NCBI RefSeq assembly: GCF_011764445.1
Contig: NZ_BLPG01000001.1
Location: 5,084,001-5,148,000, forward strand
DNA: 64,000 nt
Direction: 5' to 3'
Source: Phytohabitans rumicis
GTDB lineage: Bacteria; Actinomycetota; Actinomycetes; Mycobacteriales; Micromonosporaceae
Below are positions 39,460-58,393 of the stretch, one piece after another. The translations under genes and the position numbers were made by a program. The notes beneath the pieces were generated by a model. The model saw only the letters and a program-made list of their open reading frames with translations. It searched no databases and was not told where the DNA came from. The stretch's first letter is position 1; each line of letters begins with the position of its first letter.

Positions 39460-39520
39460 GCTGCAAGGAAGGGCCCCTTGTTATCGCTTTTTGCATAACA
39501 AGGGGCCCTTCCTTGCAGCT
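39459..39520. terminator. GCAAGGAAGGG palindromic element between convergent genes, bidirectional terminator
   Basis: 26-bp perfect arms (AGCTGCAAGGAAGGGCCCCT, TGTTAT) around a CGCTTTTTGC loop. It fills exactly the gap between the GPP34 stop and the stop of the convergent phosphohexomutase gene. Identical core to the copy at 58338. Confidence 0.8.
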
Positions 39521-56129: not shown

Positions 56130-56993
56130 GTGAGTCCTTCCAGTTGGCGGCTGCGGTTGCAGCACAAGACCGGGTTCACGTACGCGGGCAAGGTTGGCGC
56201 GTCGTACAACGAGGCCCGGATGTCGCCGCGCAACGAGGCCCGGCAGGCCGTGCTCGACGCGCGGGTGGAGGTGTGGCCGCCGGCGCGCACCTACCGGTAC
56301 GAGGACTACTGGGGCACGATCGTCACCGCGTTCGACGTGCAAGCCACGCACGAGGCGCTGCAGGTCACCGCGACCGCGACGGTGGAGACCCTGCCGCCCG
56401 GCGACCTGCTCGGCGCGGACGGCGGCGCGGACTGGGCCGCGCTGGCGGTGCCGGAGAACATCGACCGCTGGCACGAGCTGCTGCTGCCGACCCCGCGTAC
56501 CGCCCTGGACGAGGAGCTGACCGAGCTGTCCGAGCGGCTGCGCGGCGAGCACCCGACCCCGCACGCCGCCGCGCTGGCCACCTGCACGCTGGTCCGCGAG
56601 GAGGTCGAGTACCAGGCCGGTGCGACCGGGGTGCAGACGGACGCCGTACAGGCGTGGCGGCAGCGCAAGGGCGTCTGCCAGGACATCAGCCACCTCACGG
56701 TCGGCCTGCTGCGGGCGATGGGCACGCCCGCCCGGTACGTCTCGGGTTACCTGCATCCGTCGCCGGCCGCCGGGATCGGCGAGGCCGTCGTCGGGCAGAG
56801 CCACGCCTGGGTGGAGTGGTGGGTCGGCCGGTGGACGGCCTTCGACCCCACCAACGGCATCCCGGTGGGGGAGCGGCACGTCGTGGTCGGGCGCGGCCGC
56901 GAGTACGGCGACGTGCCGCCGCTCAAGGGCGTGTACTCCGGCCCGAAGAACAGTGGGCAGGGCGTAGAAGTCACTGTGACGCGGCTGCGGTAG
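56130..56993 (+). CDS. Transglutaminase-like cysteine protease
   Basis: 287 aa from GTG 56130. N-terminal bacterial transglutaminase-like domain (RLQHKTGFTYAGKVGASYNE), then the catalytic triad: Cys in QRKGVCQDISHL, His in QSHAWVEWW and Asp in FDPTNG. Third gene of the ATP-grasp/alpha-E operon (1-bp gap); presumably cleaves or cross-links the peptide handled by the ligase. Confidence 0.92.
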   Translation: MSPSSWRLRLQHKTGFTYAGKVGASYNEARMSPRNEARQAVLDARVEVWPPARTYRYEDYWGTIVTAFDVQATHEALQVTATATVETLPPGDLLGADGGADWAALAVPENIDRWHELLLPTPRTALDEELTELSERLRGEHPTPHAAALATCTLVREEVEYQAGATGVQTDAVQAWRQRKGVCQDISHLTVGLLRAMGTPARYVSGYLHPSPAAGIGEAVVGQSHAWVEWWVGRWTAFDPTNGIPVGERHVVVGRGREYGDVPPLKGVYSGPKNSGQGVEVTVTRLR

Positions 56994-57003
56994 CGGCTAT
57001 CCT
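56975..57003 (+). promoter_or_regulatory. Promoter of the threonine leader
   Basis: TGTGAC (56975-56980) and TATCCT (56998-57003) are separated by 17 bp, close to the actinobacterial housekeeping consensus. Transcription would begin near 57010, two bases before the leader ATG, giving a leaderless leader-peptide mRNA. Confidence 0.6.
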
Positions 57004-57011
57004 CTGTCGTT

Positions 57012-57065
57012 ATGCGAAGCGCGCTTGTCACTACGACGCCGGGAAGTCCCGGCATGCCTTCGTGA
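57012..57065 (+). CDS. Leader peptide with three consecutive Thr codons (candidate attenuator)
   Basis: 17 codons: MRSALVTTTPGSPGMPS. ACT ACG ACG (57030-57038) are followed at once by a CCGGGA-AG-TCCCGG stem (57039-57052), and a strong hairpin comes 15 bp after the TGA. The downstream gene is a threonyl-tRNA synthetase paralogue, so ribosome stalling at uncharged Thr-tRNA is the obvious mechanism. Too short for ordinary gene finders. No Shine-Dalgarno, but the promoter would place the ATG at the 5' end. Confidence 0.65.
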   Translation: MRSALVTTTPGSPGMPS

Positions 57066-57080
57066 TGCGCTGATCCGACA

Positions 57081-57106
57081 GGCCCCGGGCGACTCCGCCC
57101 GGGGCC
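57081..57106 (+). terminator. Attenuator hairpin before the ThrRS paralogue
   Basis: GGCCCCGGGC-GACTCC-GCCCGGGGCC, a perfect 10-bp stem followed by TTCGTGTGTCT. The CCGGG in its left arm can instead pair with CCCGG at 57048-57052 in the leader coding region, giving a possible antiterminator when the ribosome waits at the Thr codons. Confidence 0.65.
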
Positions 57107-57149
57107 TTCGTGTGTCTCCGGGTGGGTTGCCCCTCAAAAGGAGACGACG

Positions 57150-58337
57150 ATGATTGACCATCGCAAGCTCGGCCGCGAGCTCGACCTCTTCCACTCCGAC
57201 CCGCTCGCCGGTGCCGGTCTGCCGATCTGGCTGCCGGCCGGGGCGGCCGCCCGGCACGCCGTCGAGGAGTACGTCCGCGAGCTGGAGCGGCGGGCCGGGT
57301 ATCAGCACGTGTACTCGCCGCCGCTGGCCAAACGCCAGCTCTTCGAGCTGTCCGGCCATCTGCCGCACTTCGCCGACGACATGTTTCCGATCATGCGGGT
57401 GTCGGCGGACGACGAGTTCGCGCTGCGGCCCGCGCTCTGTCCGTACCACGCCTTGGTTTTCCGATCCCGGGGACGGTCCTATCGCGACCTTCCACTTCGG
57501 ATCGCGGAGCTCGGCGGCATGTACCGCGCCGAGCGTTCGGGCGTACTCGGCGGGCTGAGCCGGGTGCGGTCCATCTGGCTCAACGACGCGCACAACTTCT
57601 GCGCCCTCGACCAGGCTGGTGAGGAGATCGCCGCGATCCTGGAGATGATCCGGCGGGCGCACGCGGCGCTGGGCGTACGGCCGGCTGGCTTCCGCCTGTC
57701 ACTGCGCGGCACCGGTGGCAAGTACGTCGACAACCCGCCGATGTGGGACCGCGCCGAGGCGGTGCTGCGCGATGTGCTCCGCGCGCAAGGAGTTTCCTAT
57801 GTGGAGGCTGCGGACGAGGCGGCCTTCTACGGGCCGAAGATCGACGTACAGGTGGTCGACGCGGCCGGCCGCGAAATGACCCTCTCCACCGTGCAACTCG
57901 ACTTCCACCAACCCGAGCGGTTCGATCTGTCCTATGTGGATAGCGGTGGTATGCGCCGCCGGCCGGTCATCGTGCACCGCAGCATCGTGGGCAGCATGGA
58001 ACGCCTCTTCGCGTACCTCATCGAGGTGCACGAGGGCGCCTTTCCGATGTGGTACGCCCCGGTGCAGCTGGAGATCCTGCCGGTCGGCGACGTCGCCGTG
58101 GACGGGTTCTTCCGGGCCGCCGTCGAGGCGGGGCTCCGCGCGCAGGTCGCCGCCGAGGGCTCCCTGGGATCCCGGGTACGCGACGCGGCCCACCGCCGGG
58201 TGCCGTACGCCGCCGTCATCGGGGCGCGCGAGGCGGCCGACGGCCGGGTGTCGCTGCGGCTGCGGGATGGGCGGGCGCTGGATGCGATGCCAGCGCCGGA
58301 GGCGCTGGAGTTGCTCGTGTCGGACGCGCGGCCTTAG
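57150..58337 (+). CDS. Truncated threonyl-tRNA synthetase paralogue (catalytic plus anticodon domains)
   Basis: 395 aa, against about 640-700 for full ThrRS: the N-terminal TGS and editing domains are missing. Class II core is intact: WLPAGAAARHAVEEYVRELE, LSGHLPHFADDMFP, zinc Cys in LRPALCPYHALVF, motif 2 MYRAERSGVLGGLSRVRS, zinc His in WLNDAHNFC, and third zinc His plus motif 3 in VIVHRSIVGSMERLFAY, then the anticodon domain from about 305. AAAAGGAG precedes ATG 57150. Likely charges tRNA-Thr without proofreading; a drug-resistant or starvation-induced second copy is the leading idea. Confidence 0.85.
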   Translation: MIDHRKLGRELDLFHSDPLAGAGLPIWLPAGAAARHAVEEYVRELERRAGYQHVYSPPLAKRQLFELSGHLPHFADDMFPIMRVSADDEFALRPALCPYHALVFRSRGRSYRDLPLRIAELGGMYRAERSGVLGGLSRVRSIWLNDAHNFCALDQAGEEIAAILEMIRRAHAALGVRPAGFRLSLRGTGGKYVDNPPMWDRAEAVLRDVLRAQGVSYVEAADEAAFYGPKIDVQVVDAAGREMTLSTVQLDFHQPERFDLSYVDSGGMRRRPVIVHRSIVGSMERLFAYLIEVHEGAFPMWYAPVQLEILPVGDVAVDGFFRAAVEAGLRAQVAAEGSLGSRVRDAAHRRVPYAAVIGAREAADGRVSLRLRDGRALDAMPAPEALELLVSDARP

Positions 58338-58393
58338 TGCAAGGAAGGGCCCCTTGTTATCGCTTTTTGCATAACAAGGGGCCCTTCCTTGCA
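58338..58393. terminator. GCAAGGAAGGG palindromic element between convergent genes, bidirectional terminator
   Basis: 23-bp perfect arms (TGCAAGGAAGGGCCCCTTGT, TAT) around CGCTTTTTGC; starts on the base after the ThrRS-like stop and ends 3 bp before the stop of the convergent permease gene. Same 56 bases as the copy at 39462-39517. Confidence 0.8.

What the first reader, a model, noticed from the sequence alone, without database searches (positions are those of the whole stretch)
56975..57150. Threonine-codon attenuator in front of an editing-less ThrRS paralogue
Seen: a well-spaced promoter, a 17-codon leader peptide with ACT ACG ACG in a row, a stem directly after those codons (57039-57052), a 10-bp GC hairpin (57081-57106), then the gene. 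CCCGG at 57048-57052 can pair with CCGGG in the terminator's left arm. Known: ribosome-mediated attenuation uses runs of the regulated amino acid's codons. Inference: low Thr-tRNA charging, or a ThrRS inhibitor, stalls the ribosome, frees the antiterminator and switches on the second ThrRS. I do not know of this control described for such a paralogue.
Basis: partly seen in the sequence, partly recalled or inferred. Interest (0 to 1): 0.82.

Follow-up and report, generated by a model that had tools for sequence, protein, structure and literature searches.

The report
Threonine-starvation switch before spare threonyl-tRNA synthetase
In front of a spare, proofreading-less enzyme that loads threonine onto tRNA lies a short RNA switch that reads a run of threonine codons; it is kept in many actinobacteria, and the enzyme's own gene has almost no threonine codons, as if built to be made when charged threonine tRNA runs out.

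Summary
Of 117 orthologues of the 395-aa ThrRS paralogue (ThrRS2) examined, 115 have enough upstream DNA, and all 115 carry an apparently leaderless mini-ORF with a Thr-codon run (three or more codons in 113, two in L029 and L106) followed by Pro, a hairpin starting at the last Thr codon, and, in nearly all, a GC hairpin before the gene whose 5' arm keeps YCGGG, the antiterminator core (112 of 115). A covariance model of the leader finds 14 strong sites, one per genome, all in front of ThrRS2. The novelty claim fails in part: a 2021 Streptomyces lividans reannotation lists this leader (thrL) before a thrS, and its exact peptide lies before ThrRS2 in two genomes of a genus taken to be Streptomyces. 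Beyond the finding: (1) ThrRS2 is nearly purged of Thr (median 4 of ~390 residues; canonical 16-20) and its Thr codons are ACC/ACU in 533 of 536, whereas the leaders use ACG in 326 of 343; different tRNAs read them; (2) a WblC/WhiB7-like box sits at the right place in 75 of 115 promoters. No expression data.

The parts
56967..56972 (+). degenerate WblC/WhiB7-like box (GAAGTC; consensus GAAAWY, one mismatch), 31 nt before the -10
   Evidence: consensus from PMC7157823 (passages); box with at most 1 mismatch at 31-34 nt in 75 of 115 orthologues, 0-7 at seven control offsets
56975..56981 (+). weak -35 region (TGTGAC 56975-56980 with 17-nt spacer, or GTGACG 56976-56981 with 16)
   Evidence: sequence; -35 matches are weak in the set; no E. 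coli-type promoter in scan
56998..57003 (+). -10 element TATCCT; a TAnnnT lies 6-9 nt before an in-frame leader start in 115 of 115 orthologues
   Evidence: up to four in-frame starts tried per locus; 10 of 1116 other ATG/GTG in the same stretches have one
57012..57065 (+). probably leaderless leader-peptide ORF MRSALVTTTPGSPGMPS
57030..57038 (+). regulatory threonine codons ACT ACG ACG
   Evidence: ACG 326 of 343 leader Thr codons over 115 loci
57038..57053 (+). hairpin 1:2 (GCCGGG AAGT CCCGGC) beginning in the last Thr codon
57048..57092 (+). predicted antiterminator: arm 2 CCCGG 57048-57052 with arm 3 CCGGG 57085-57089
   Evidence: weakest structural part (one search found no excess in arm-to-arm duplex energy)
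57080..57107 (+). terminator-like hairpin 3:4, 12 bp
57140..57143 (+). ribosome-binding site GGAG of ThrRS2
   Evidence: sequence
57150..58337 (+). ThrRS2: 395-aa threonyl-tRNA synthetase paralogue, catalytic and anticodon-binding domains only
   Evidence: Pfam tRNA-synt_2b and HGTP_anticodon only; TIGR00418 421.5 bits, cut-off 383.65; zinc ligands and motif 2/3 Arg in 117 of 117

Best explanation
The region is a ribosome-mediated transcription attenuator for a spare ThrRS. Shown by sequence and conservation: mini-ORF, Thr run at about codons 7-9, hairpin 1:2 starting at the last Thr codon, terminator-like hairpin 3:4. Predicted by folding: an alternative 2:3 pairing. Inferred: the transcript starts at or next to the leader AUG; with charged tRNA-Thr the ribosome runs to the stop codon, 2:3 cannot form, 3:4 forms and transcription stops; when tRNA-Thr is uncharged (threonine lack, failure or inhibition of the main ThrRS) the ribosome stalls on the Thr codons, masks arm 1, arm 2 captures arm 3 and polymerase reads into thrS2. 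The promoter looks like a WblC/WhiB7 target in many species, so the gene is probably gated twice: general translation stress raises initiation, threonine-specific stalling allows read-through. ThrRS2 has almost no Thr and avoids ACG, so it can still be made under the condition that turns it on.
For: Thr run with Pro in a mini-ORF in 115 of 115 testable loci, TAnnnT 6-9 nt before its start in 115 of 115. Hairpin 1:2 found in all 115. Terminator stem: in an independent MAFFT/RNAalifold run on 43 leaders, 8 of 14 consensus pairs have two-sided changes; the stems found in 115 leaders vary in their outer part but keep YCGGG in 112, against 18.8% of shuffled arms, 0 of 9 and 2 of 11 control hairpins. 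Arm 2:arm 3 pairing in the minimum-energy fold without arm 4 in 113 of 115, median z -1.76, 60 of 115 below -1.64. The covariance model finds 14 strong sites (51.5 bits or more), all beside ThrRS2; the 44 fetched weaker sites (37.6 bits or less) lack it. No TTT run was seen in the sequence before seven canonical thrS genes.
Against: No U-tract after the hairpin (for the window; 1-4 T in the next 8 nt in 108 of 115, whose hairpin calls were wrong for some loci). Arm 2:arm 3 duplex energy is no better than with shuffled arm 3 (z -0.02), because CCGG is self-complementary. Hairpin 1:2 is almost invariant, so it gives little covariation support. In one search pairs are counted inside stems found by a stem search, so their pairing is by construction. 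Loci are related and not independent. No transcript, read-through or charging data.
Confidence: 0.83

Rival explanations
1. The Thr codons do sense tRNA-Thr charging, but the outcome is not intrinsic termination: the hairpin acts through Rho, RNA decay or pausing, or the leader changes translation of thrS2.
For: No U-tract; PMC8079986 also notes one hairpin and no U-rich stretch for S. lividans thrL (passages).
Against: A long GC hairpin ends 20-93 nt (median 49, L062 left out) before the gene start, too far in most loci to hide the ribosome-binding site. PMC2965389 (passage) says predicted Rho-independent terminators are at a minimum in Actinobacteria, so a U-tract is a poor test here.
Confidence: 0.12
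2. The leader is a general translation-speed sensor for antibiotics that works with WblC; threonine is incidental.
For: WblC-like box at the right place in 75 of 115 promoters; thrS2 is listed as a WblC-activated gene of S. coelicolor (PMC7157823 Table 1, passage).
Against: The run is Thr in 115 of 115, before a threonine enzyme, and the gene itself avoids Thr and ACG; a general sensor would not need this.
Confidence: 0.05
3. ThrRS2 is a zinc-limitation stand-in like Anabaena ThrRS T2 (Zur-controlled), and the leader is a secondary layer.
For: Editing-defective second ThrRS induced by low zinc in Anabaena (PMC4787780, passages).
Against: The promoter resembles WblC targets. The three zinc ligands are kept in 117 of 117, but T2 keeps them too by PMC4787780, so this does not decide. 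A Zur site was not searched for.
Confidence: 0.04
4. Chance ORF and generic terminator with no regulatory link.
For: GC-rich genomes hold many hairpins; a loose Thr-codon-hairpin pattern occurs 11 times in G000, none of them this leader, whose last base differs from the pattern.
Against: Conservation of the parts across the set and one strong site per positive genome.
Confidence: 0.01

Closest known systems
thrL/thrS of Streptomyces lividans TK24 (SLIV_19412/SLIV_19410), PMC8079986
   Same: Thr-codon leader peptide, leaderless transcript, one hairpin without U-run, before a ThrRS gene; its exact peptide lies before ThrRS2 in two genomes
   Different: The passages read give a two-Thr peptide with no alternative pairing, no comparison across species, no remark on a missing editing domain or on codon use; the window member has three Thr codons
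Attenuators of trpS and leuS in Streptomyces (PMC1262725) and of the auxiliary indolmycin-resistant TrpRS (Kitabatake; Vecchione and Sello, named in PMC9437257; the attenuation work itself is recalled, not seen)
   Same: Ribosome-mediated attenuation of a (spare) aminoacyl-tRNA synthetase in actinobacteria
   Different: Other amino acid; [quoted passage not shown]
thr operon attenuator of E. coli
   Same: Thr codons in a leader peptide
   Different: Controls biosynthesis; its leader has eight ACC codons (PMC1183508 passage), here ACG
Anabaena ThrRS T1/T2 (PMC4787780) and ObaO of Pseudomonas fluorescens (PMC11252418)
   Same: Second ThrRS kept for a special condition
   Different: Zur repression, or antibiotic self-resistance by Ser in place of Ec Gly463; ThrRS2 keeps that Gly in 117 of 117

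Membership tests
Ribosome-mediated transcription attenuator | Short leader ORF with a run of codons of the regulated amino acid | tested here: met
   115 of 115 testable loci; TTT run in 106 of 115 against Arg 32, Ala 12
Ribosome-mediated transcription attenuator | Mutually exclusive hairpins 1:2, 2:3, 3:4 | tested here: met
   by prediction only: 1:2 and 3:4 in the consensus; 2:3 in folds of 113 of 115; duplex test without excess; no structure probing
Ribosome-mediated transcription attenuator | Terminator with U-tract | tested here: not met
   none on + strand; mostly 1-4 T in 8 nt; this defines an E. coli-type intrinsic terminator, not attenuation as such
Ribosome-mediated transcription attenuator | Read-through rises when the cognate tRNA is uncharged | not testable with these tools
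   needs reporter or RNA-seq
S. lividans thrL/thrS attenuator | Same leader in front of an orthologous gene | tested here: met
   exact peptide in 2 of 392 genomes of one genus, each before a 63%-identical short ThrRS; the S. lividans record itself was not opened
WblC/WhiB7 regulon | GAAAWY 3 nt upstream of the -35 | tested here: inconclusive
   window box has one mismatch; family 32 of 115 exact within 45 nt of the -10, 75 of 115 with at most one mismatch at 31-34 nt, 40 without
Threonyl-tRNA synthetase | TIGR00418 score, zinc ligands, motif 2 and 3 Arg | tested here: met
   421.5 bits against cut-off 383.65; residues in 117 of 117
Threonyl-tRNA synthetase | N-terminal TGS and editing domains | tested here: not met
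   only core and anticodon domains found in the 395 aa; hence editing-less
T-box or other Rfam riboswitch | Match to an Rfam model | tested here: not met
   0 matches in the window at gathering scores
Zur-controlled second ThrRS | Zur site | not tested
   none

The most novel reading that the evidence does not exclude
Isoacceptor-partitioned switch: the leader senses the tRNAs that read ACG (anticodons CGU and UGU) while thrS2 is written almost only in ACC/ACU (read by GGU) and has lost nearly all threonine, keeping mainly the catalytic-motif Thr247. Sensor and output thus depend on different members of one tRNA family, so the rescue enzyme can be made while the sensor tRNA is empty. This would be a natural, widely conserved use of selective tRNA charging.
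Probability: 0.5. Interest if true: 0.75.

Novelty: new member of a known kind. Interest (0 to 1): 0.6.

Why it matters
Spare tRNA synthetases are common but when and why they are used is mostly unknown. Here the control RNA, a stress-type promoter and the coding sequence all point to one condition, loss of charged tRNA-Thr. The opposite codon choice of sensor and gene offers a clean test of whether selective charging of isoacceptors shapes genes, and the leader could serve as a reporter for ThrRS inhibitors in actinobacteria.

Tried and rejected
Chance ORF: rejected by conservation. Known riboswitch: no Rfam match. Leader shared with canonical thrS: no TTT run in any frame in the stretch searched (up to 400 nt before the open frame, only 189 nt in L070, plus the first part of the frame) of seven canonical genes.

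Drug-resistance reading of ThrRS2: inconclusive. Ec Gly463, whose change gives obafluorin and borrelidin resistance (PMC11252418, passages), is kept in 117 of 117; at Ec489 the paralogues have Gln in 81 of 117 but so do 6 of 7 canonical enzymes; Ser replaces Ala at Ec513 in 112 of 117 (Ala in 7 of 7 canonical) and Ser/Ala/Gly stands for Met at the position I took for human M411 in 117 of 117. A592 (Ec513) and M411 are among the positions PMC4389257 names as altered in borrelidin-resistant archaeal enzymes (passages), so resistance is possible but not shown. Residue numbers were assigned by motif, not by a structure.

Outer helix around hairpin 1:2: only 34 of 115 loci reach p 0.05 or less; left as a note. 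Loose DNA pattern for the leader: unspecific. Arm-to-arm duplex test: no excess; a fold of the truncated transcript with a better hairpin finder was then used. The pair table is anchored on the YCGGG core and drops leaders without it; the count that matters is the unanchored 112 of 115. The stem finder gave no YCGGG arm in L048, L061 and L081.

Not done: structure prediction, phylogenetic tree, Zur-site search, reading any paper in full (passages or listings only). The search listing says SCO3778 occurs in PMC7157823, but the find there gave none; identity of S. coelicolor thrS2 with SCO3778 is therefore recalled, supported only by the words threonyl tRNA synthetase-SCO3778 in PMC10771440 (one passage).
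Full report
WHAT WAS CHECKED. Contigs of genomes in its genus have the lengths of named records: G001 Phytohabitans flavus, G003 P. maris, G005 P. suffuscus, and G004 a record titled Micromonospora sp. CPCC 205371. The host is therefore taken to be a Phytohabitans-type member of the Micromonosporaceae (inference). The gene at 57150-58337 encodes 395 aa with only the class II core and anticodon-binding domains and passes the thrS model TIGR00418. G000 also holds a second ThrRS, 41% identical, in a 746-aa open frame, taken as the canonical enzyme. The best solved relative is S. aureus ThrRS, 352 bits, against 253 for E. coli 1qf6.

ANATOMY. The upstream gene ends at 56993. Then come -10 TATCCT (56998-57003), the leader ATG at 57012, MRSALVTTTPGSPGMPS, hairpin 1:2 at 57038-57053, hairpin 3:4 at 57080-57107, GGAG at 57140-57143 and the gene at 57150. 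Fold of 57012-57112: -56.1 kcal/mol, z -4.8, 0 of 200 shuffles as stable.

CONSERVATION. ThrRS2 orthologues were taken from searches of the genus (6 genomes), family (150) and class (197), and 117 loci were used (L001, L003-L007, L019-L069, L071-L130; fetched). Short or more distant family matches (G006, G027, G029, G038, G120) and whatever lies below the listed rows were not fetched. L068 and L118 have only about 100 nt upstream and cannot be judged. Of the other 115, 114 show two to four Thr codons followed by Pro in a mini-ORF, and L062 shows it after allowing for an N-terminal extension. L029 and L106 have two Thr codons, L130 four, the rest three. In all 115 an in-frame ATG (107) or GTG (8), 5 to 11 codons before the run, has TAnnnT 6-9 nt upstream (up to four starts tried per locus); the same is true of 10 of 1116 other ATG/GTG in those stretches. 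This fits a leaderless leader transcript, which PMC8079986 reports for S. lividans thrL (passages).

STRUCTURE. Hairpin 1:2 begins at a median of 2 nt before the end of the Thr run, and the leader stop ends a median of 10 nt after arm 2, so a ribosome on the Thr codons covers arm 1 and one at the stop codon lies over or next to arm 2. RNAalifold on a MAFFT alignment of 43 leaders gives both hairpins; 8 of 14 pairs have two-sided changes. In stems found by a separate search (107 distinct of 115 leaders; pairing there is by construction) the outer part of 3:4 varies widely in sequence, while arm 3 keeps YCGGG in 112 of 115, against 18.8% of shuffled arms, 0 of 9 other strong hairpins in the window and 2 of 11 in flanks of related loci. 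That core can pair with CCCGG of arm 2. With arm 4 left out, 113 of 115 transcripts fold with at least four arm 2:arm 3 pairs, median z -1.76, and 60 of 115 below -1.64. A plain duplex test gave no excess (z -0.02; hairpins miscalled in some loci). The 2:3 switch is therefore well suggested but not proven.

DEDICATION. The covariance model R1 (43 leaders) was run on 61 genomes of the order and 198 of the phylum. Scores are bimodal. Fourteen distinct sites, each in another genome, score 51.5 bits or more and all lie just upstream of ThrRS2 (52-100% identity); the 44 other fetched sites, all of 37.6 bits or less, have no ThrRS2 within the locus. Further weak matches were not fetched. Nine of the 14 genomes gave no leader to the model (G049, G068, G084, G097, G725, G743, G750, G809, G919); the last five were also new to the set of 117. 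Ten genomes where searches showed only canonical-level matches (G008, G152, G180, G188, G198, G215, G222, G231, G255, G260) gave no strong site. Searches over 40 genomes used stricter filters that can lose weak sites.

CODON PARTITION (not in the finding). In the 117 ThrRS2 stretches Thr makes up 1.18% (536 of 45,611 codons; median 4 per gene, range 1-11). In the same stretch of seven canonical ThrRS it is 4.49% (16-20 per gene), and in 43 crude gene calls of the window (some surely in the wrong frame) 5.37%; S. aureus ThrRS has about 16, counted by eye. Thr is the most reduced amino acid relative to the canonical enzyme (ratio 0.26; next Lys 0.36 and Asn 0.39, so other residues shift as well). 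Of the 536 codons 526 are ACC, 7 ACU, 2 ACG, 1 ACA, while ACG is 33% in the canonical genes and 39% in the window genes; the same ThrRS2 genes use GCG 43%, CCG 75%, GTG 50%. At the two near-invariant Thr columns ACC is 97 of 99 and 116 of 117, whereas in 65 near-invariant Ala, Pro, Val and Gly columns the commonest codon reaches 0.40-0.92 and never 0.98. The leaders do the opposite: ACG 326, ACC 15, ACU 2 of 343 (the fourth Thr codon of L130 not counted). The last leader ACG is partly fixed by hairpin 1:2; the first two are mostly not. G000 has tRNA-Thr with anticodons GGU, CGU and UGU, so ACC/ACU and ACG are read by different tRNAs (standard decoding rules). PMC1183508 (passages) says regulatory codons in E. 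coli attenuators match the isoacceptor most sensitive to starvation, and that selective charging was verified for Thr isoacceptors; but there the thr leader uses ACC, so that ACG is the sensitive codon in actinobacteria is an assumption. PMC4209129 (passages) reports low cognate bias in amino acid pathways. The listed papers of my two searches on this (15 of 38, 15 of 27) showed none on such a partition within one attenuator-gene pair.

PROMOTER. PMC7157823 (passages) lists thrS2 first among representative WblC-activated tRNA synthetase genes of S. coelicolor and gives GAAAWY 3 nt upstream of the -35. In the set, GAAAWY lies within 45 nt of the -10 in 32 of 115, 25 of them at 33 nt; with one mismatch allowed it lies at 31-34 nt in 75 of 115, against 0-7 at seven control offsets, and A+T rises to 0.90 at one position of that patch. 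Forty loci lack it by this test. The window has GAAGTC, one mismatch. So general translation stress and threonine-specific stalling probably act together; this is inference.

PRIOR ART. PMC8079986 lists thrL before a thrS in S. lividans. Its exact peptide was found in 2 of 392 genomes of one genus, taken to be Streptomyces because of that peptide; each has a -10 just before the start, both hairpins and a 63%-identical short ThrRS next to it. PMC1262725 had found no conserved RNA structures before threonine operons of actinobacteria (passages). Other literature searches: listings only apart from the passages cited. The mechanism is thus an instance of a known kind; what I did not see in those passages and listings is its breadth, the covariation, the dedication to the editing-less paralogue and the codon partition.

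VERDICT.

Noticed in passing
window 57150-58337 and 116 orthologous loci: ThrRS2 is almost free of threonine and of ACG codons, the mirror image of its ACG leader.
   Followed up: yes
window 56967-56972: WblC/WhiB7-like box in front of the leader promoter; exact or near match at the right distance in 75 of 115 orthologues.
   Followed up: partly
window 57018-57023 and 57066-57071: Possible outer helix (AGCGCG near the leader start with TGCGCT just after the stop) around hairpin 1:2; two-sided change CAGTGC/GCACTG in L027 and L035, but weak statistics (34 of 115 at p 0.05 or less).
   Followed up: partly
window 28809, 39465, 39496, 58341, 58372, 61819: Dispersed repeat AAGGAAGGGCCCCTTGTTA or ...GGGCACCTTGTTA, six matches and none in 100 shuffles; at 39465-39514 and 58341-58390 two copies face each other as long inverted repeats, the second just after ThrRS2.
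   Followed up: no
G000 C1:8887457-8891174 (L254, L269, L277-L279): Dense array of about 20 tRNA genes, among them tRNA-Thr CGU and GGU additional to those elsewhere on the contig; possibly a mobile element.
   Followed up: no
S. lividans metL peptide in PMC8079986 Table 4: The leader listed before metNIQ contains ATTTPGA, resembling the TTTPG of this family; perhaps a coincidence.
   Followed up: no
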